This document shows, one piece after another, positions 3,286 through 51,588 of a DNA stretch of 64,000 nt. Position numbers and translations under genes: made by a program. Source of the stretch: Verrucomicrobiaceae bacterium (GTDB lineage: Bacteria; Verrucomicrobiota; Verrucomicrobiia; Verrucomicrobiales; Verrucomicrobiaceae); the NCBI GenBank assembly GCA_947458455.1, contig CANGYJ010000006.1, positions 310,001 to 374,000 on the forward strand. The letters are read 5' to 3'. Position 1 is the first letter of the stretch. Each line of letters opens with the position of its first letter. The notes beneath the pieces are model-generated. The model did no database searches. It saw nothing but the letters and a program-made list of their open reading frames with translations, and had not been told where the DNA came from.

Positions 3286-4641
3286 ATGCGTTTTCGCAAT
3301 CTTACCCGTCGTCGTGAAATCGGCGCTAACTGCTACCTCCTCGAATCCGGGGACCAGCGTGTCGTTTTGGACTCCGGCATGCATCCCAAATTTGCCGGCT
3401 ATGCGGCGACGCCGGATTTTGGCCCGCTGCCGGATCATTCGGCGAACGCCATCTTCGTCACCCACGCTCACCACGATCACATCGGCTCCCTACCCGTGCT
3501 CCAGCGGCGGCAGGAGAAGACCCCCGTGCTCATGACGGAGGTCACCGGCGAGCTCAGCAGCGCCATGCTGCACAATTCCGTCAATGTGATGACGAAGCAG
3601 CGCGAAGAGGAAAACATCCCCGAATATCCGCTCTTCACTCACCGTGAGCTTGATGACATCCGCCGTGACTGGATCTACCGCGACATCGAACGCCCCTTTA
3701 ATGTCCCTGATACCGATTGGGAGGCGACGATGTTTGATGCCGGGCACATCCTCGGCTCGACGGGCGTTTTGATCCGCGAAGGCTCCAACACGCTGTTTTA
3801 TACGGGTGATGTCAATTTTGAAAACCAGACCATCTGCCGTGCGGCGGACTTCCCGACGAGTGGCATTGATGTTTTGATCATGGAGAGCACGCGAGGTGAT
3901 TTTGCCCGCCCGGAAGCCTACAGCCGCAAAGGTGAAAAAGAGCGCCTCGCCTCCGTCATTCGTGATACGCATGAGGCAGGAGGAGCCGTGCTGATCCCCG
4001 TCTTTGCCCTCGGCAAGACGCAGGAGGTCATGCTCATGGTTCACGAGCTGCTGCAGGAGGGCCTCATCCCCGCATGCCCGCTCTTCATGGGGGGCCTGAG
4101 CACGAAAATCACCGTGCTTTATGATCACTACGCCTCCCGCAGTCGCCGGAGCTACCCAGGCTTTCGCATCCTGGAGGACATCAAGATGCTCACCCCACGC
4201 AAACGCGGTCGCACGGAGCTTACCGCCAATGCCCGCTGCCTCTACGCCCTCTCCAGCGGCATGATGACAGAGCACACCGCCAGCAACCAGTTTGCCTGGA
4301 AGTTCCTCGATAACCCACGCAACGCCATCTGCTTTGTCGGCTACACGGACCCTGATTCCCCCGGCTACAAAATCCGTACGGCCAAGGAGGGTGATATGAT
4401 CAAGCTGGCTAAAGACCTGCCGCCCGTGCCGCTGCGCTGCCGGGTGGAAAGCTTTGACCTCAGCGCCCACGCCACCCGCGAACAGCTCGCTGATTACGCC
4501 GAGAAGGTGAAGCCGAAGAAGCTTCTGCTCGTTCACGGAGATGAGCCTGCCCAGATGTGGTTCATCAATCGCTTCCGCGAGACGATACCCGAGACAGAGG
4601 TCGTACGTCCTGACTTGCATCAGCCGCTGGAGCTTTGGTAA
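3286..4641 (+). CDS. Beta-CASP family metallo-beta-lactamase-fold RNase/hydrolase
   Basis: 451 residues from ATG 3286; an earlier GTG at 3235 would add an unlikely 17-residue lead. The zinc motif HAHHDH is at residues 60-65, followed by TGDV (later metal Asp), an ESTRGD segment and a C-terminal LLLVHGD. The insert between the metallo-beta-lactamase halves and the SAHATREQL segment place it in the beta-CASP/RNA-specificity group, whose members are RNA exo/endonucleases. It probably acts in the cytoplasm on RNA. folA starts 4 nt after its stop, so the two are likely co-transcribed. The family is firm; the RNA substrate is inferred. Confidence 0.85.
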   Translation: MRFRNLTRRREIGANCYLLESGDQRVVLDSGMHPKFAGYAATPDFGPLPDHSANAIFVTHAHHDHIGSLPVLQRRQEKTPVLMTEVTGELSSAMLHNSVNVMTKQREEENIPEYPLFTHRELDDIRRDWIYRDIERPFNVPDTDWEATMFDAGHILGSTGVLIREGSNTLFYTGDVNFENQTICRAADFPTSGIDVLIMESTRGDFARPEAYSRKGEKERLASVIRDTHEAGGAVLIPVFALGKTQEVMLMVHELLQEGLIPACPLFMGGLSTKITVLYDHYASRSRRSYPGFRILEDIKMLTPRKRGRTELTANARCLYALSSGMMTEHTASNQFAWKFLDNPRNAICFVGYTDPDSPGYKIRTAKEGDMIKLAKDLPPVPLRCRVESFDLSAHATREQLADYAEKVKPKKLLLVHGDEPAQMWFINRFRETIPETEVVRPDLHQPLELW

Positions 4642-4645
4642 GACA

Positions 4646-5128
4646 ATGAAACTCATCGCCATCGTCGCCATGTCTGCGAATCGTGTCATCGGACGCGAGG
4701 GGAAGCTGCCGTGGCATTACCCGGAGGATTTGAAGTTCTTCAAAAAGACGACGCTCGGCCATCCGGTGCTGATGGGTCGCGCGACCTTTGATTCCATCGT
4801 GACGGCGATCGGTAAGCCGCTACCGGGTCGGCAAAACATCGTGCTGAGCCGCACGATGGAGCCTCGCGAAGGCGCGACCATCCTACGTGATGTCAGCGAG
4901 CTGCCAAATGTGTGCGCACCGGATGCGACGGTGTTTGTGATCGGCGGGGCGCAGGTGTTTGCCGAGCTGCTGCCGCGTTGCGATGGTTTTTACCTCACGC
5001 ACATCGCAAAGGAGTTCGAGGGCGATGTGTTCCTGCCACCGTTCGAGCATTTGTTCCGGCTGAAGGAATTCGTCGGCACCTCGGAAGAGCTGGAGTTTCG
5101 CTACTACGAGGCCGTTTCGGCTGCATGA
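4646..5128 (+). CDS. folA: Dihydrofolate reductase
   Basis: 160 residues, normal length for DHFR. It reduces dihydrofolate to tetrahydrofolate with NADPH. Visible family marks are the N-terminal strand IAIVAMSANRVIG, LPWHYPEDLKFFK with the proton-donating acidic residue at about 28, MGRATFDSI, and the NADPH-binding FVIGGAQVF near residue 100. ATG 4646 gives the canonical N-terminus; the upstream extension of the frame belongs to the preceding gene. It follows the beta-CASP gene by 4 nt. Confidence 0.95.
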   Translation: MKLIAIVAMSANRVIGREGKLPWHYPEDLKFFKKTTLGHPVLMGRATFDSIVTAIGKPLPGRQNIVLSRTMEPREGATILRDVSELPNVCAPDATVFVIGGAQVFAELLPRCDGFYLTHIAKEFEGDVFLPPFEHLFRLKEFVGTSEELEFRYYEAVSAA

Positions 5129-5161
5129 CGACGCGAGCAGAGGCCGTTGATAGCGGCCACC

Positions 5162-6337
5162 ATGCTTCGCTCGCTTTCCTTCCTCGTCGTTTTCTCCCTC
5201 AGCCAGGCCCTGGCACTCGATGTCGCCAAGCTCGCTGCGATTCACCCAGCCATGGAGGAGGCCGTGAAGGCCAAACAAGCCGCTGGCATCGTCACGCTCG
5301 TGATGGAGAAGGGCAAAATCGTTCACCACGATGCGGCGGGCATGGCCGACATCGCCAAAGGCCGCGCCATGGAAAAAGATGCGCTGTTCTGGATCGCCTC
5401 GATGACGAAGTCGGTGAACGGCGCGGCCATTCTCTGCCTCGTGGACGATGGCAAGCTCTCGCTCGATGAACCCGCCTCCAAGTGGTTGCCGGAACTCGCT
5501 AAGGTGACTGTCGAAGGCGGCGCAAAACCGGAGAAGCCCATCACCCTGCGCATGCTGCTCTCGCACACGGCGGGCATCGCCTTCCCTTCTCGCAAGCCAA
5601 GCGACGGAGCCATCTCGCTGAAGTCCTATGTCTCCACGCTGATCAAGACGCCGCTCGCCTTCCAGCCGGGCAGTGCCTACGAATATGGTTTCGGCCCCAC
5701 CGTGGCTGGGCGCATCCTCGAAATCGTCAGCGGCATGAAGTATGAGGATTTCCTCCGCACACGCCTGTTTGAGCCACTGGGCATGAAGGACACCACCTTT
5801 CATCCCGATGATGTGCACCGCGCCCGCATCGCCCGCACTTACAAGATGGATGAGGACACGAACGAGCTCGTGCCAGGCTACAACCCCTTCGTCACCAGCG
5901 ATGCCAGCGTGCAGCACATGCCGGAGCCTGCGGGTGGTCTTTTCTCCACGGCGGCGGACATGGGGCGCTTTTACGCCATGGTCGCCAGCGGCGGCGAACT
6001 CGACGGCAAACGAATCCTCAGCCAAAAAACCGTCCAAGACATGCTCATGCCTGTCACCGCCGGTGGGAAGCAGCTCAACTACGCCTGCGGCTGGATGCAC
6101 AACACCGAAACACAACGCGTATGCGCCGCGATGCCCGTCGGCAGCCACGGCCACGGCGGTGCCTTTGCCACGAATGGCTGGATCGATCCCTCTTCCGGCC
6201 TCGTGACCGTCTTCATGGTGCAAAACGTCCTCGTTCCCGATGGCAGCAAGCCGCGTGATGCCTTTCAAAAGCTTGTGATGGAAGCCGCGGGCATTGTCGT
6301 GAAGCCGCCAGCGGCTGCGAAGAAGGGTAAGAGGTAG
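5162..6337 (+). CDS. Secreted serine hydrolase, beta-lactamase (class C) / esterase family
   Basis: 391 residues from ATG 5162. The N-terminus (MLRSLSFLVVFSLSQALA) is a signal peptide. SMTK at residues 80-83 is the SxxK nucleophile motif, a Tyr of the YxN-like motif lies at 173-175 (YEYGF), and HGHGGAF near residue 335 is the third motif. The family holds penicillin-binding-protein-like carboxylesterases and class C beta-lactamases. Its YxN motif is atypical, so an esterase or peptidase role is likelier than true beta-lactamase. The TAG stop (6335-6337) lies in the GTAGG end of the 6334-6517 repeat, so the C-terminal KKGKR tail may have been set by that insertion. Confidence 0.88.
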   Translation: MLRSLSFLVVFSLSQALALDVAKLAAIHPAMEEAVKAKQAAGIVTLVMEKGKIVHHDAAGMADIAKGRAMEKDALFWIASMTKSVNGAAILCLVDDGKLSLDEPASKWLPELAKVTVEGGAKPEKPITLRMLLSHTAGIAFPSRKPSDGAISLKSYVSTLIKTPLAFQPGSAYEYGFGPTVAGRILEIVSGMKYEDFLRTRLFEPLGMKDTTFHPDDVHRARIARTYKMDEDTNELVPGYNPFVTSDASVQHMPEPAGGLFSTAADMGRFYAMVASGGELDGKRILSQKTVQDMLMPVTAGGKQLNYACGWMHNTETQRVCAAMPVGSHGHGGAFATNGWIDPSSGLVTVFMVQNVLVPDGSKPRDAFQKLVMEAAGIVVKPPAAAKKGKR

Positions 6338-10622: not shown

Positions 10623-10880
10623 TCAAGCCACCGCTTTGGCCCCTTCGACAGCCTGCACGATGGAATCGACGGATTGCAGCACCTGCCTGGCCTGCTCCTG
10701 ATCCGCCATTTTGAAGCCGTAATGCTTTTCGAGCATCACGACGAGCTGAAGAGCATCCACGGAATCAAGACCGACGCCGGCTGGGCCGAAAAGGGGTGTG
10801 TCATCGCCGATATCGGTGGCTTTGAGATCGAGCATGAGCTCGGCGATGAGGAGTTCTTTGAGGCGCTGGCGTGTGAGCAT
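10623..10880 (-). CDS. Stand-alone acyl carrier protein
   Basis: 85 residues. The 4'-phosphopantetheine attachment site is the Ser in LDSVDALQL (residue 40), followed by the helix LVVMLEKHYGF. The length is normal for ACP. No ketosynthase or malonyl transferase accompanies it, so it is probably a specialised carrier rather than the housekeeping AcpP. It lies 3 nt before the YbhN-like gene and 31 nt after the SDR reductase on the same strand, suggesting an acyl chain built or reduced on it is passed to a membrane step. Confidence 0.9.
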   Translation of the reverse strand: MLTRQRLKELLIAELMLDLKATDIGDDTPLFGPAGVGLDSVDALQLVVMLEKHYGFKMADQEQARQVLQSVDSIVQAVEGAKAVA

Positions 10881-10911
10881 GTGACGATCGGAAAGGAAAG
10901 CGCGGCAGGAT

Positions 10912-11628
10912 TCAAATCATGCCGCCGTCGATGGGAAGAGCGGTGCCAGTGATATAGCTGGCCTCCGGGCTGGCAAGGAAGAAAACCGCCGCCGCCACCT
11001 CGGCAGGCCGGGCAAAGCGGCGCATCGGAAGCTGCATCTTGAGCGCTTTGAGGTGTTCTTCGCTCCATTCAGGCGGCAGGCCGCCCTCGATGTAGCCGGG
11101 CAGCACGGCATTCACCGTGATGCCCATGCGGGCGGCTTCTTTGGCGAGGCTCTTGGTGAGGCCCACGACGCCCGCCTTGGCGGCGGCGTAGTTCGTCTGA
11201 CCTGCGGGCGGGTGGATGGCGCTGAGGGAGGCGATGTTCACGATGCGCCCGCCGCGCTGCCGCATCATCACCGCCAGCGCCGCTTGGCAGCCATGGAAGA
11301 CGGAGCCGAGATTACCTTCGAGAACGCGGGACCATTGATCCGCCTTCATATTCGCCAGAAGCACATCGTCATGAAAACCGGCGTTGTTCACTAGGACATC
11401 AAGACTGCCGATCTGCTCGATAGCGGCCTTCCACGCGTCGGGATCGGTGATTTCGAGGGTGACGAGCTTGGCACGGCCTTCGGAGCGCTCCACGAGGGAT
11501 GCAGCACGCTCACGCCGCTCACGCACGCCGAGGTGGACGATGGCGTCAGGCTCGTAGGAGAGGAAAAACTCGGCGATGGCGAGGCCAAGGGTTCCGTTGG
11601 CTCCGGTGATGAGGATATTTCGAGGCAT
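10912..11628 (-). CDS. SDR-family 3-oxoacyl-ACP reductase-like protein
   Basis: 238 residues of classical SDR architecture: cofactor loop GANGTLG (residues 9-15), NNAG at 81-84, catalytic S134, Y147 and K151 (YAAAK). The C-terminal FFLASPEASYITG block is usual for FabG-like enzymes. Upstream of an acyl carrier protein, reduction of a 3-oxoacyl-ACP is the natural reading, though other alcohol/ketone substrates cannot be excluded. It is the first gene of a five-gene minus-strand run (SDR, ACP, YbhN-like, patatin, enolase-family). Confidence 0.85.
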   Translation of the reverse strand: MPRNILITGANGTLGLAIAEFFLSYEPDAIVHLGVRERRERAASLVERSEGRAKLVTLEITDPDAWKAAIEQIGSLDVLVNNAGFHDDVLLANMKADQWSRVLEGNLGSVFHGCQAALAVMMRQRGGRIVNIASLSAIHPPAGQTNYAAAKAGVVGLTKSLAKEAARMGITVNAVLPGYIEGGLPPEWSEEHLKALKMQLPMRRFARPAEVAAAVFFLASPEASYITGTALPIDGGMI

Positions 11629-11744
11629 GGAAAGGTGGTGTTTAAGCCTTCAGCAGGCTGTGGCAAGCCGTGGTTGCTTCCAGACGGCTCCTCCTTTACG
11701 CTCGGCGCAAGGCGGCAGATGCCGCGTGATCTTTTCCAGCACCT

Positions 11745-11973
11745 CGCACCACCGAATTTCCTGCAGTGTTCGTTATTGAGCTTTGTGGCCCGGCCCGTTT
11801 CAAACCTATCGGGAGCTGCGCATTTGGGATGTCATGTCAGGCCTTCACTGGAAGACAGCATCCCGATCCTGCGAGCACCCACCTGGACTCATGGGATACG
11901 TGAGCCCGCTGTCTCGGACGGCACAGGTGGGTCTGAAAGCGCTCCAGCTCCGCCTGGGGCGCTTTCTCTTTTT
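11745..11973 (+). ncRNA. Probable structured non-coding RNA ending in an intrinsic terminator
   Basis: The 360 bp gap between divergent-side SDR and truB holds no plausible ORF but several stable helices: GGGATG...GCATCCC (about 11827-11873), a perfect 9 bp stem ACCCACCTG/CAGGTGGGT (about 11877-11933), then a strong intrinsic terminator on the plus strand. No plus-strand protein gene precedes that terminator, so something transcribed rightward must end there. Size (roughly 180-230 nt) and a TGTTCGT near the 5' side would be compatible with 6S RNA, but I could not build its central bubble. The 5' end is a guess. Confidence 0.45.
11935..11973 (+). terminator. Rho-independent terminator
   Basis: The stem GAAAGCGCTCCAG pairs with CTGGGGCGCTTTC (11935-11947 with 11954-11966), with one G-T pair, and is followed by TCTTTTT. 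The T-tract is on the plus strand only, so it ends a rightward transcript. Confidence 0.85.
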
Positions 11974-11988
11974 AGAGGGACCGTTCTC

Positions 11989-12720
11989 TTATGCTCCACG
12001 CATCTTCGAGACGTCGTAGAGGGAAAGCATGGAGGAGAGGCAGGCATCCCGCTGGCCGCCTTTGAGCATGTCGAAGGTGACGTGCTTGCCTGGCTCCAGC
12101 GTAAAATGACCGCTGCGCGTGCGCCGCAGGGCGCTCAGGTGGGCACCGCAGCCGAGCTTTTGACCGATGTCATGCGCGTAGGTGCGCACATAGAAGCCTT
12201 TGCTGCACACGACGCGGAAATCGACCTGTGGCATCTCGACGCGGTTGATTTCGTAGTTATAGACGCGAACGAAGCGTGGCTCACGCACGACCTCCTTGCC
12301 CTGACGGGCGAGTTTGTAGAGCGGGACGCCGTCGATCTTCACGGCGCTGACCATGGGAGGCGTCTGGTAAAAATCGCCTCGGAACTGGTCGAAGGCTTCG
12401 ACGATCTGCTCCTTGGAAAAATCCGGCACGGGCTTCTGTTCGAGAATTTCGCCCTCGGCATCCTGCGTGTTCGTGGTGGCCCCAAAGGTCATGGTGCCGG
12501 TGTATTCTTTGTCCTCACTCATGAGGAGGTCCTGGATACGAGTGGCGGTGCCGACGACGAGGATGAGCATGCCGGTGGCCATCGGATCGAGGGTGCCACA
12601 ATGGCCGATCTTTTTGGTGTTGAGGCAGCGGCGAGCCACGGCCACCACGTCATGAGAGGTCATGTCCTGGCCTTTATCGACCAGGAGCACGCCGTTAATC
12701 GAGTCGTCGGACTTCATCAT
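11989..12720 (-). CDS. truB: tRNA pseudouridine(55) synthase
   Basis: 243 residues from ATG 12720; an adjacent ATG at 12717 is equally possible, and an upstream one would run deep into nrnA. The catalytic motif HCGTLDPMATG puts the nucleophilic Asp at residue 45. Further TruB marks are INGVLLVDKG at the N-terminus, the KEYTGTMTFG strand and RTYAHDIG. It makes pseudouridine at position 55 of tRNA in the cytoplasm. It overlaps the 3' end of nrnA by about 25 nt, the truB/nrnA pairing common in bacteria. Confidence 0.93.
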   Translation of the reverse strand: MMKSDDSINGVLLVDKGQDMTSHDVVAVARRCLNTKKIGHCGTLDPMATGMLILVVGTATRIQDLLMSEDKEYTGTMTFGATTNTQDAEGEILEQKPVPDFSKEQIVEAFDQFRGDFYQTPPMVSAVKIDGVPLYKLARQGKEVVREPRFVRVYNYEINRVEMPQVDFRVVCSKGFYVRTYAHDIGQKLGCGAHLSALRRTRSGHFTLEPGKHVTFDMLKGGQRDACLSSMLSLYDVSKMRGA

Positions 12721-46214: not shown

Positions 46215-46379
46215 ACAGGATTGATGATTGTCGATCAACCGAATGTTGATTTTCGATTTCAGGCTCGCTCTCGAACGTGACTCACTTTAACAGCCGAGCG
46301 AGACAGACAGCCGCAGGCTGCCCGAAGGGAAGCGAAGCGCATCAGTCAGCAATCGTTATTCATCAATCGTCAATCCTGT
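46215..46379. repeat. 165 bp element with 16 bp terminal inverted repeats
   Basis: ACAGGATTGATGATTG (46215-46230) and CAATCGTCAATCCTGT (46364-46379) match at 15 of 16 inverted positions. The interior has further short palindromes and no ORF. It is MITE-like in size. It stands directly before the truncated MBL fragment and supplies its TTG start-like codon, so it marks the break of that gene. Confidence 0.7.
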
Positions 46380-50169: not shown

Positions 50170-50971
50170 ATGACGCCAACACTTTGCATCCTCGGCGGCT
50201 GCAACGGCGCGGGAAAGACCACGCTCGCCCGCGAACTGCTGCCGCGCCTCGGCCTGATGCGGTTTCTGAACGCGGATGCGCCGAAAGCCTTGGGAAGGCT
50301 TGAGACTGACTGATCGAAGATCAGCCCGAAGGGGGCCGGACTGGGATGTCCGGCATCCAATCGCCCGAGGCCTCTCGCCGCTCGATCCCACGCTCAGCGC
50401 CTTCAAAGCGGGCCGCCTGCTGCTGGAGGAGGCGCGGTCACTGATGGCATCCAAGGCCAGCTTTGCCATCGAATCGACTCTGAGCGGCAAAACCTACGTC
50501 GCGCTGATCCGCGAGGCCAAGGCACTCGGCTATCGCTTCCTGCTGCACTACATCGTGATCGGCTCCGGGGCGCAGGCGGTGGGCCGTGTGGCGCTGCGGG
50601 TAAGGCTGGGCGGTCATCATGTGCCGGAGGAGGATGTGCTGCGCCGTTTTGATCGCAGCCGCAGGCACTTCATTGAGGATTACCTGCCCCTTGCCGATGA
50701 ATGGGGGCTGTGGGACAATGCCTCACCGCCGCCGACGAAAATCGCTGACAACACCACGCACACCCTCGATCAACTCCAAGCCATGCTCGCCTCCGACACC
50801 CTTCAAGAAGCTCCGACGCGTGAAATGTCGGAGATGTCGAAAATCGTGCTCGAAGCCGGCCGCGTAGCCACGGAGAAGATGCTCGATTACTACAAGCGCA
50901 TGGGCATCAAGGTGACTCCCGAGATGACGCTGGCACCGGAGAGGAAAAAGAGGGCGAAGAAGGCGGCGTGA
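50170..50971 (+). pseudogene. Zeta-toxin-like P-loop kinase, disrupted by an 82 bp insertion
   Basis: From ATG 50170 the protein reads LCILGGCNGAGKTTLARELLPRLGLMRFLNAD, a zeta-toxin/COG4185 P-loop start, then stops 16 codons later. The continuation IARGLSPLDPTLSAFKAGRLLLEEARSL resumes at 50360 in another frame and runs to 50971 with FAIESTLSGKTY. The intervening 50278-50359 has three small hairpins and is foreign to the family. Net +79 bases shifts the frame. Before insertion it would phosphorylate UDP-sugars or a related substrate; now the P-loop is cut from the rest. Confidence 0.8.
50278..50359. repeat. 82 bp palindromic insert in the zeta-toxin-like gene
   Basis: Three hairpins: GCCTT-GGG-AAGGC, CTGATC-GAA-GATCAG and GCCGGAC-TGGGAT-GTCCGGC. 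It separates FLNAD from IARGLSP of the host protein. I saw no second copy in this window. Confidence 0.65.
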
Positions 50972-50975
50972 TGGT

Positions 50976-51365
50976 TCAAGGCGTGTGCCGCTTTGCTTTC
51001 GAGCGGCCGCCTTTCCAGAGGTCGTATTTGGGATCGGCGTGGCGGGTGAAGAAGGTGTCGAGTTGCTTGGCGAGACCGGCTTGGATGTCGGCGGTGGCAG
51101 GTTAGGCGTATGGGTTGAAGCGTTCCTAAGGGTCGGCCTGCATGTCGTAGATTTCAAAAGGGCCGGAAGGATGGCGGGAGACATATTTCCAGCACTCGCT
51201 GCGGATGGCGCGGGTGGTTTCCATCTCGAAAAAGACGGTGGTGTCCCAGTTTTCGAGCTTTTGACCTCGCAGCGCAGCGGAGAAATCGTGACCGGGGGAT
51301 TTCGGAGCCTGTGGCATGGGTTGGCCGAGGTAGCTGAGGATGGCCTCAGATGCCTCCGATTGCAT
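50976..51365 (-). pseudogene. C-terminal sulfatase remnant with two in-frame stops
   Basis: On the minus strand 51365-51126 reads a sulfatase tail (DFSAALRGQKLENWDTTVFF... KYVSRHPSGPFEIYDMQADP). The frame then continues after TAG as ERFNPYA, then TAA, then PATADIQAGLAKQLDTFFTRHADPKYDLWKGGRSK to a TGA at 50976. The reading on both sides of the stops matches S1 sulfatase C-termini. The catalytic N-terminal part is absent. It is a decayed gene. Confidence 0.8.
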
Positions 51366-51366
51366 C

Positions 51367-51588
51367 GCGCCATATGTGGATGCGTTTCTTGAGCTCTACC
51401 CTCATGCCTTCGCGTGGCTGTGTGAATCCGCCGAACGCGTGGAGATCCATTTCCTCGGTCCGCTCAGCTTTAGTTCCAATACCGAGGTGCTGCTGCCCGT
51501 GGAGTTCACCACGCAAAATCTCGCCATGCCTGCCACCGAACCCAACAACATCGCCGCCTGGCGTGGCCAGCAAGCAGCAGCGGAGTAA
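51367..51588 (+). pseudogene. C-terminal fragment of an unidentified protein
   Basis: The plus frame reads a plausible protein end (AFLELYPHAFAWLCESAERVEIHFLGPLSF, then a beta-rich run to ATEPNNIAAWRGQQAAAE). It has no start or signal and begins at the edge of the sulfatase remnant, so it looks like a truncated gene of another origin. Family unknown. Confidence 0.35.

What the first reader, a model, noticed from the sequence alone, without database searches (positions are those of the whole stretch)
50278..50359. Zeta-toxin-like gene inactivated by an 82 bp triple-hairpin insert
Host protein reads FLNAD then resumes at IARGLSP; the insert changes frame by net +79. It is a clean example of palindrome-driven gene death and would leave a P-loop-less C-terminal product if ATG 50276 is used.
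Basis: partly seen in the sequence, partly recalled or inferred. Interest (0 to 1): 0.6.

Follow-up and report, generated by a model that had tools for sequence, protein, structure and literature searches.

The report
Mobile hairpin element inside toxin-like gene
A 79-base hairpin-rich mobile DNA element, one of an apparently new family whose copies carry a built-in guide matching their insertion site, has jumped into a toxin-like gene and split it, and close copies sit in the same gene of three other bacteria.

Summary
Bases 50278-50280 are the host's own codon 37 (GAG/GAA in 30 of 31 copies uninterrupted there; GCG here). Net +79 puts the P-loop part and the rest of a zeta-toxin/AAA_33-like gene in different frames; both parts are otherwise open.

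The insert belongs to an apparently undescribed family of about 52-87 bp elements in Verrucomicrobiaceae, 22 copies in this genome by covariance model. The family shows the recognition logic of IS200/IS605 (Y1/HUH) transposition: insertion 3' of a short host site (GAG/CAG/GAA/CAA), a TCAA or GCAA 3' end, and an internal guide, AGA-Y-AG-M-C, in which Y covaries with the last host base and M with the first base of the 3' end. I conclude it is a non-autonomous, REP-like element probably moved in trans by a Y1 or REP-associated transposase; the enzyme is not identified.

Some copies sit in frame in other genes (thiC, mnmG, a methylase). The zeta subtype is 79 bp in all four copies found, all in this gene family, at two sites; the three placed on a gene tree fall apart. 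That gene preference is unexplained.

The parts
50170..50277 (+). Codons 1-36 of the zeta/AAA_33-like gene (P-loop GGCNGAGKT ... FLNAD); this frame continues into the insert and stops at 50311-50313
   Evidence: Pfam hits of this piece alone are below the curated cut-offs
50278..50280 (+). Host codon 37 (GCG; GAG or GAA in 30 of 31 copies uninterrupted there), the left target site (SAR) of the element
50281..50359 (+). The 79-bp mobile hairpin element (family covariance model hit 50288-50359, 50.1 bits)
50285..50301 (+). Hairpin 1, AAGCCTT-GGG-AAGGCTT
50302..50310 (+). Guide region GAGACTGAC; Y = C at 50306 (partner of the last base of the left site), M = A at 50309 (partner of the first base of the 3' end)
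50310..50324 (+). Hairpin 2, CTGATC-GAA-GATCAG
50325..50333 (+). Small hairpin CCC-GAA-GGG
50335..50354 (+). Hairpin 3, GCCGGAC-TGGGAT-GTCCGGC; one base pair is swapped relative to the other copies
50356..50359 (+). Right end TCCA; TCAA in the three other copies of this subtype
50360..50971 (+). Remainder of the zeta/AAA_33-like gene (203 codons plus stop), open and conserved
50276..50971 (+). ORF of 231 aa that would start at the junction (ATG 50276) and lacks the P-loop; expression unknown
46294..46345 (+). Second copy of the element family in the window (49.6 bits)

Best explanation
The insert is a non-autonomous mobile element (family range about 52-87 bp) that works like the fused ends of an IS200/IS605-type (Y1/HUH) transposon. 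As single-stranded DNA it would fold into three or four hairpins. A guide (AGA-Y-AG-M-C) between hairpins 1 and 2 matches, through Y, the last base of a host site SAR (GAG, CAG, GAA, CAA) at the left junction and, through M, the first base of the element's own 3' end (TCAA or GCAA). A Y1 transposase supplied in trans would cut 3' of both sites and insert the element without duplicating target DNA. Here it inserted behind codon 37 of a zeta-toxin/AAA_33-like gene. At 79 bp it breaks the reading frame, leaving a 47-aa P-loop peptide and, at most, a P-loop-less downstream product. Both sites of this copy now depart from consensus (left GCG, right TCCA), so it is probably stuck. Shown: family, boundaries, pairing rule, frame break, other copies. 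Inferred: the enzyme, single-strand movement, immobility, loss of protein function.
For: 31 pattern hits in 18 of 68 genomes, 0 in the reversed control; covariance model hits in 17 of 21 genomes that I chose, 22 in this one. Guide/site covariation in 97 parsed copies: last host base with Y, G-C 68, A-T 20, others 9 (Fisher on the A/G rows, p 2e-15); first 3'-end base with M, T-A 83, G-C 9, others 5 (p 2e-10). One copy per 36 sequence clusters: p 1.6e-4 and 7e-4; in 33 usable clusters mutual information is highest at exactly those two guide bases. Stem pairs covary: 101 double-changed cells against 37.5 in shuffles (alignment fitted to the model). TCAA is also the right cleavage site of IS608, whose guides lie 5' of the hairpins. 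Compared with copies uninterrupted there, insertion adds 79 bp and no host base is missing. PF01797 Y1 transposases: 12 in this genome, 67 of 68 genomes of the family. A protein matching REP-associated tyrosine transposase (NF047646, 80.9 bits, cut-off 80; PF01797 22.8, just under its cut-off of 23) in G059 has element copies on both sides, one weak (15.8 bits, E 0.015).
Against: No Y1 gene carrying this element as its own ends was found. I scanned only part of the Y1/RAYT loci (30, 47, 30, 14 more, partly overlapping); three loci (G059, G058, G009) have a family match at E <= 0.01, and the G059 copies lie among other repeats (by eye). A three-base target does not explain why all four copies found of this subtype are in one gene family. 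In one search some automatic left boundaries are wrong, those of the zeta copies among them; one search corrects some and spoils others and flags 17 of 96 copies as misfits: by eye 13 are boundary or guide parsing errors, 2 are true and G.T (G033 zeta copy; L187), 2 unresolved (L182:578, L097). Folding energy is ordinary. All sequence is from assemblies; no reads were seen.
Confidence: 0.82

Rival explanations
1. The element is tolerated: the gene stays functional because the insert is skipped, by ribosomal bypassing or frameshifting or by removal from the RNA.
For: Halves of the gene in the window, G068 and G012 are open and conserved, and their mean pN/pS (0.243, 0.206, 0.245) lies within the range of 25 intact genes (0.205-0.299; blind to recent change). 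hsdR in G009 and G068 carries several inserts and is still conserved (476 codons, dN 0.12, dS 0.99).
Against: Four inserts in otherwise complete-looking ORFs are in frame and read as protein: ThiC of G029, a methylase of G010, a DUF1549 protein of G029, MnmG of this genome; skipping would not require that. These cases were picked because their frames were open, not by a survey. In G068 the upstream frame stops before the downstream frame opens, so one frameshift cannot join them. G033's copy of the gene has decayed further. In hsdR the inserts are antisense.
Confidence: 0.08
2. Reversible switch: the element leaves precisely, as IS608 does, so the gene is turned off and on within populations, and the zeta-like gene is a preferred or selected site.
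For: IS608-type excision seals the donor precisely. The same gene family is hit at two sites, and on the tree the three placed copies need three changes of state; halves otherwise open in three of four copies.
Against: The window copy departs from consensus at both cleavage sites. No read data. Element identity (86-92%) exceeds host identity at fourfold sites (33-52% in all comparisons but window-G033, 70%), which points to late gains rather than one old switch.
Confidence: 0.1
3. One old insertion at codon 37, inherited vertically and lost precisely many times.
For: Three of four copies share the site. The tree tool notes that three changes could be one gain and two losses. Window and G033 are the closest pair in the upstream part.
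Against: Supported branches force at least 2 changes, 3 in all bootstraps. Elements are 86-92% identical where host fourfold sites are mostly saturated. The G012 copy is at another site.
Confidence: 0.08
4. Assembly artefact or chance palindrome.
For: Draft assemblies; the fold energy of the region is ordinary.
Against: A 79-bp insert of the same subtype occurs in four assemblies, and stems of the family covary.
Confidence: 0.02

Closest known systems
IS200/IS605 family ends (IS608) and non-autonomous derivatives
   Same: Hairpins, insertion 3' of a short host site kept in the left flank, right end TCAA, guide bases matching the left and right cleavage sites, no target duplication seen
   Different: No gene inside; about 52-87 bp; left site is SAR rather than TTAC; both guide parts lie in one short linker; the guide varies naturally together with the host site
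REP / BIME / REPIN elements with REP-associated tyrosine transposases (RAYT, TnpA_REP)
   Same: Short palindromic repeats, tens of copies in some genomes, genomes rich in Y1 transposases, one RAYT-type gene flanked by copies in G059
   Different: No GTAG or CGTC tag at the hairpin foot in the consensus; several hairpins; a defined junction, also inside genes
Rickettsia palindromic elements (RPE) and intragenic REPs of Opitutus terrae
   Same: Palindromic elements inside protein genes, read in frame (PMC3733652 section 15; here)
   Different: Different sequence (no alignment to RPEs was made; recalled); here a guide/site rule accounts for the junction; the window copy is out of frame

Membership tests
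IS200/IS605-type (Y1/HUH) element | Insertion 3' of a short host sequence, kept in the flank, no target duplication | tested here: met
   Net +79 with no host base missing or doubled; host codon 37 GAG/GAA in 30 of 31 copies uninterrupted there
IS200/IS605-type (Y1/HUH) element | Guide bases 5' of a hairpin that pair with left and right cleavage sites | tested here: met
   Covariation of Y with the last host base and of M with the first 3'-end base; misfits listed there. Pairing itself is inferred
IS200/IS605-type (Y1/HUH) element | Subterminal hairpins conserved by covariation | tested here: met
   hairpins 2 and CCC-GAA-GGG strong; the modelled pairs of hairpin 3 only 36-38% paired because its length varies
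IS200/IS605-type (Y1/HUH) element | Encodes its own Y1 transposase | tested here: not met
   Copies are about 52-87 bp; at most a non-autonomous relative
IS200/IS605-type (Y1/HUH) element | Moved by a Y1 enzyme | not testable with these tools
   Needs biochemistry
REP (RAYT-associated) | GTAG/CGTC-type tetranucleotide tag at the hairpin foot | tested here: not met
   The conserved linker is AGAYAGMC
REP (RAYT-associated) | Copies flank a RAYT gene | tested here: inconclusive
   G059 on both sides (15.8 bits, E 0.015, and 49.9 bits); one match each at a G058 and a G009 locus; none at E <= 0.01 in the other loci scanned
Rickettsia palindromic element-like | In-frame insertion in protein genes | tested here: not met
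   Met by some relatives, not by the window copy (79 bp)
Zeta toxin / AAA_33 | Family profile match of the intact protein | tested here: met
   G053 orthologue: AAA_33 42.7 bits (cut-off 27), Zeta_toxin 31.6 (cut-off 22.3); no PDB sequence match at E <= 0.01. Window pieces alone do not reach the cut-offs
Zeta toxin / AAA_33 | Toxic kinase activity and cognate antitoxin | not tested
   Neither searched for nor assayed

The most novel reading that the evidence does not exclude
A DNA-guided mobile element whose guide has co-evolved in nature with its insertion site, and one lineage of which repeatedly and reversibly switches off one toxin-like gene across genera and families: a transposon-built off-switch rather than random damage.
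Probability: 0.1. Interest if true: 0.85.

Novelty: new variant of a known kind. Interest (0 to 1): 0.55.

Why it matters
For IS608 the guide/target pairing and its re-programming are laboratory results (PMC5934647, passages). This family offers a natural series in which guide base and host site change together over many copies and genera, in elements as short as about 57 bp. Because the SAR site can double as a Glu or Gln codon, insertion can add an in-frame peptide, so one family both decorates conserved proteins such as MnmG and ThiC and splits dispensable toxin-like or defence genes. The recurrent hit on one toxin-like gene makes it testable whether such elements choose, or are selected for, particular genes.

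Tried and rejected
Copies of the subtype elsewhere: plasmids gave only two partial matches of 21 and 24 bases (E limit 1); phages none (E limit 0.1); viral contigs none for two exact patterns; the window none beyond chance. Metagenome contigs were not searched. Rfam: with E-value thresholds, no hit on the element; the one hit over its gathering score in those stretches was a TPP riboswitch in L037.

Programmed frameshift: rejected as a shared mechanism, because in G068 the upstream frame stops before the downstream frame opens. Bypassing or RNA removal: disfavoured because four inserts in complete-looking ORFs are in frame. I raised this rival from 0.06 to 0.08 on checking: G009's hsdM frame ends 54 codons after its second insert, and the two 84-bp ThiC cases are partial ThiC ORFs, so these are not clean examples.

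Homing with co-transferred flanks: at the hsdR site shared by G009 and G068 the 64-bp elements are identical while the flanks differ and gene dS is about 1 over all segments, 0.37 to 2.35 by segment. At the zeta site flank identity is not raised next to the element. Left open.

RAYT loci: of those scanned most lack the element. Automatic boundaries produced false misfits in the pairing test; both passes are given. Branch-wise tests of selection were not done.

Full report
Observation. The gene starts at 50170 and reads MTPTLCILGGCNGAGKTTLARELLPRLGLMRFLNAD, then enters the insert and stops at 50311-50313; the rest of the protein is in the next frame, 50360-50971. Most intact orthologues printed read NADEIARGLSP or NADEMARGLSP. 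Of 32 copies examined, 30 have GAG (28) or GAA (2) at codon 37 (whose pattern accepts only GAR; they include G012, interrupted elsewhere, and the paralogue in this genome); G046 has Leu and G068 is interrupted there. So 50278-50280 is host codon 37 and the insert is 50281-50359, 79 bp. The fold energy of the region is not exceptional (z -0.97).

Other copies of this subtype. One pattern scan of genome contigs (84,980 species genomes by the tool's description) found two records, G033's and one new, L110, whose genome received the handle G068. A search of 386 genomes of the order at E <= 1e-4 found four genomes; the G472 hit matches G068 in contig number and position, so I take it as the same genome; G472 belongs to another family of the order. 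All four copies are in the same zeta-like gene family: the window, G033 and G068 behind codon 37, G012 at FAFE^STLSG. All are 79 bp. In G033 the gene has decayed further.

Separate gains. On a tree of the downstream part, the window, G068 and G012 genes fall in three places (3 changes in all bootstraps; well supported branches force at least 2; the tool notes that three changes could be one gain and two losses). G033 was not on this tree. The elements are 86-92% identical, while fourfold sites in the downstream part agree at 34/66, 29/69 and 27/66 for the three pairs; in the upstream part the range is 7/21 to 16/23, highest for window-G033, so window and G033 may share one insertion. Elements thus look younger than most of the gene splits. 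Mean pN/pS of the three interrupted genes (0.206-0.245) lies within that of the 25 intact genes compared (0.205-0.299; five distant rows left out). This measure is blind to recent relaxation.

The family. Weak BLAST hits shared a core. The pattern AGACNGACTGN{2,18}GCCCGAAGGG gave 31 hits in 18 of 68 genomes and none in the reversed-pattern control. In 387 genomes drawn across the phylum it hit 2, this genome and G012; the pattern is exact and demands Y = C, so copies like G068's escape it and the narrow range is only indicative. A covariance model from 23 copies matched in 17 of 21 chosen genomes at E <= 0.001: 22 copies in this genome, 43 in G046, 30 in G059. On 77 aligned matches (70 distinct) the stems covary: 101 cells changed on both sides against a shuffled mean of 37.5, and 0 of 500 shuffles reach the covariation score; a weaker measure, further pair types, is reached by 44 of 500. 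That alignment was fitted to the model, which leans towards its structure, and the hairpin-3 pairs of the model are poorly paired (36-38% of cells) because that hairpin varies in length. Many loops are C-GNA-G; that d(GCGNAGC)-type mini-hairpins are very stable as DNA is recalled, from no call.

Mechanism. In 97 parsed copies (6 more dropped for unparsed ends) the host base left of the element and guide base Y go together: G with C 68, A with T 20, G with T 4, T with C 3, A with C 1, C with C 1. The first base of the 3' end and guide base M: T with A 83, G with C 9, T with C 3, G with T 1, T with G 1. Some automatic left boundaries in that call are wrong, those of the zeta copies among them. 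A second automatic pass kept 96 copies (one more without a guide match); with one copy per 36 clusters it gave p 1.6e-4 and 7e-4, and over the 33 clusters usable for it mutual information peaks at those two bases (0.35 and 0.37 bits). It flags 17 copies as misfits; by eye 13 are boundary or guide parsing errors, 2 are true and would be G.T (G033: GAG with T; L187: GCAA with T), 2 are unresolved (L182:578, L097). IS608 has right cleavage site TCAA, guides 5' of the hairpins, insertion 3' of TTAC and precise sealing of the donor (PMC5934647, passages). TnpA_REP enzymes are argued to use the GTAG tag in a similar way (PMC8266576, passages; PMC6006769, passages). I infer a Y1 enzyme acting in trans. 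Y1_Tnp genes occur in 67 of 68 genomes. One RAYT-type gene (NF047646, 80.9 bits against a cut-off of 80; PF01797 22.8 against 23) in G059 lies between two copies in opposite orientation, 49.9 and 15.8 bits, but these copies sit among other repeats (by eye), and most RAYT loci scanned have none. The enzyme is therefore not identified.

Copies in other genes. In cases that I picked because their frames were open, the element follows a Glu or Gln codon in frame in a full-length-looking ThiC of G029 (63 bp), a DNA N6-methylase of G010 (63), a DUF1549 protein of G029 (57) and MnmG of this very genome (57). HsdM of G009 has 60- and 63-bp in-frame copies, but its frame ends 54 codons after the second. 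A partial ThiC ORF in G029 and a 199-aa ThiC ORF in G017 carry 84-bp in-frame copies at the same site. The inserted peptide is PSGARQTAxGSPKG-like in most of these. By contrast hsdR in G009 and G068 carries several copies, at least one of 64 bp and out of frame, while its segments stay conserved. The in-frame cases suggest that the element is kept in the message and translated. Intragenic REPs and RPEs are known (PMC3733652, section 15 read whole, other passages seen).

State of the window copy. Its left site is GCG rather than GAG/GAA and its right end TCCA rather than TCAA. Hairpin 3 keeps pairing through a swapped base pair. So this copy is probably immobile and the gene permanently split. 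Whether the 231-aa downstream ORF is made is unknown.

What remains open. A three-base site cannot explain why the subtype was found only in this gene. Selection for loss of a costly gene, exchange of the gene between species with later element movement, or a longer pairing with the target are possible; none was shown.

Literature. Searches (capped listings of 20, 15, 10 and 10 papers) showed no paper on this family; that is not proof that none exists.

Noticed in passing
window 46294-46345 (+): A second copy of the element family (49.6 bits), ending CATCAG, in a short repeat-like stretch upstream of what reads as part of a metallo-hydrolase gene (by eye).
   Followed up: partly
L176 1514-1570 and 2828-2887 (G000:C4): mnmG/gidA of the window's own genome carries one in-frame copy, and its reading frame ends inside a second copy.
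   Followed up: partly
L214 about 10677-12146 (G009:C1) and L211 about 4561-5527 (G068:C510): hsdR genes with several antisense copies each; by my reading two sites are shared between the genomes, one with identical 64-bp elements; gene otherwise conserved (dN 0.12, dS 0.99).
   Followed up: partly
L198 1064-1147 (G029) and L074 313-396 (G017): The same site in partial ThiC ORFs carries an 84-bp in-frame copy in two genomes; hairpin 3 differs by what looks like paired changes.
   Followed up: partly
L172 and L173 (G009:C7 and C26): Two loci in one genome carry two of the same elements in near-identical flanks.
   Followed up: no
L191, L193 (G000:C6): Copies in this genome share further flanking sequence (TCTGC.GTTTCG ... 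GGAACCGGGAATGTCGAT), as if part of a larger composite repeat.
   Followed up: no
L136 and L125 (G065, G067): Y1 transposase loci with another hairpin repeat that has a CCCGAAGGG hairpin and, in L136, a GCGAGTCAA stretch; possibly a distant relative of this family.
   Followed up: partly
window about 51000-51370 (-): ORF pieces that read like the C-terminal part of a sulfatase, apparently a fragment (by eye).
   Followed up: no
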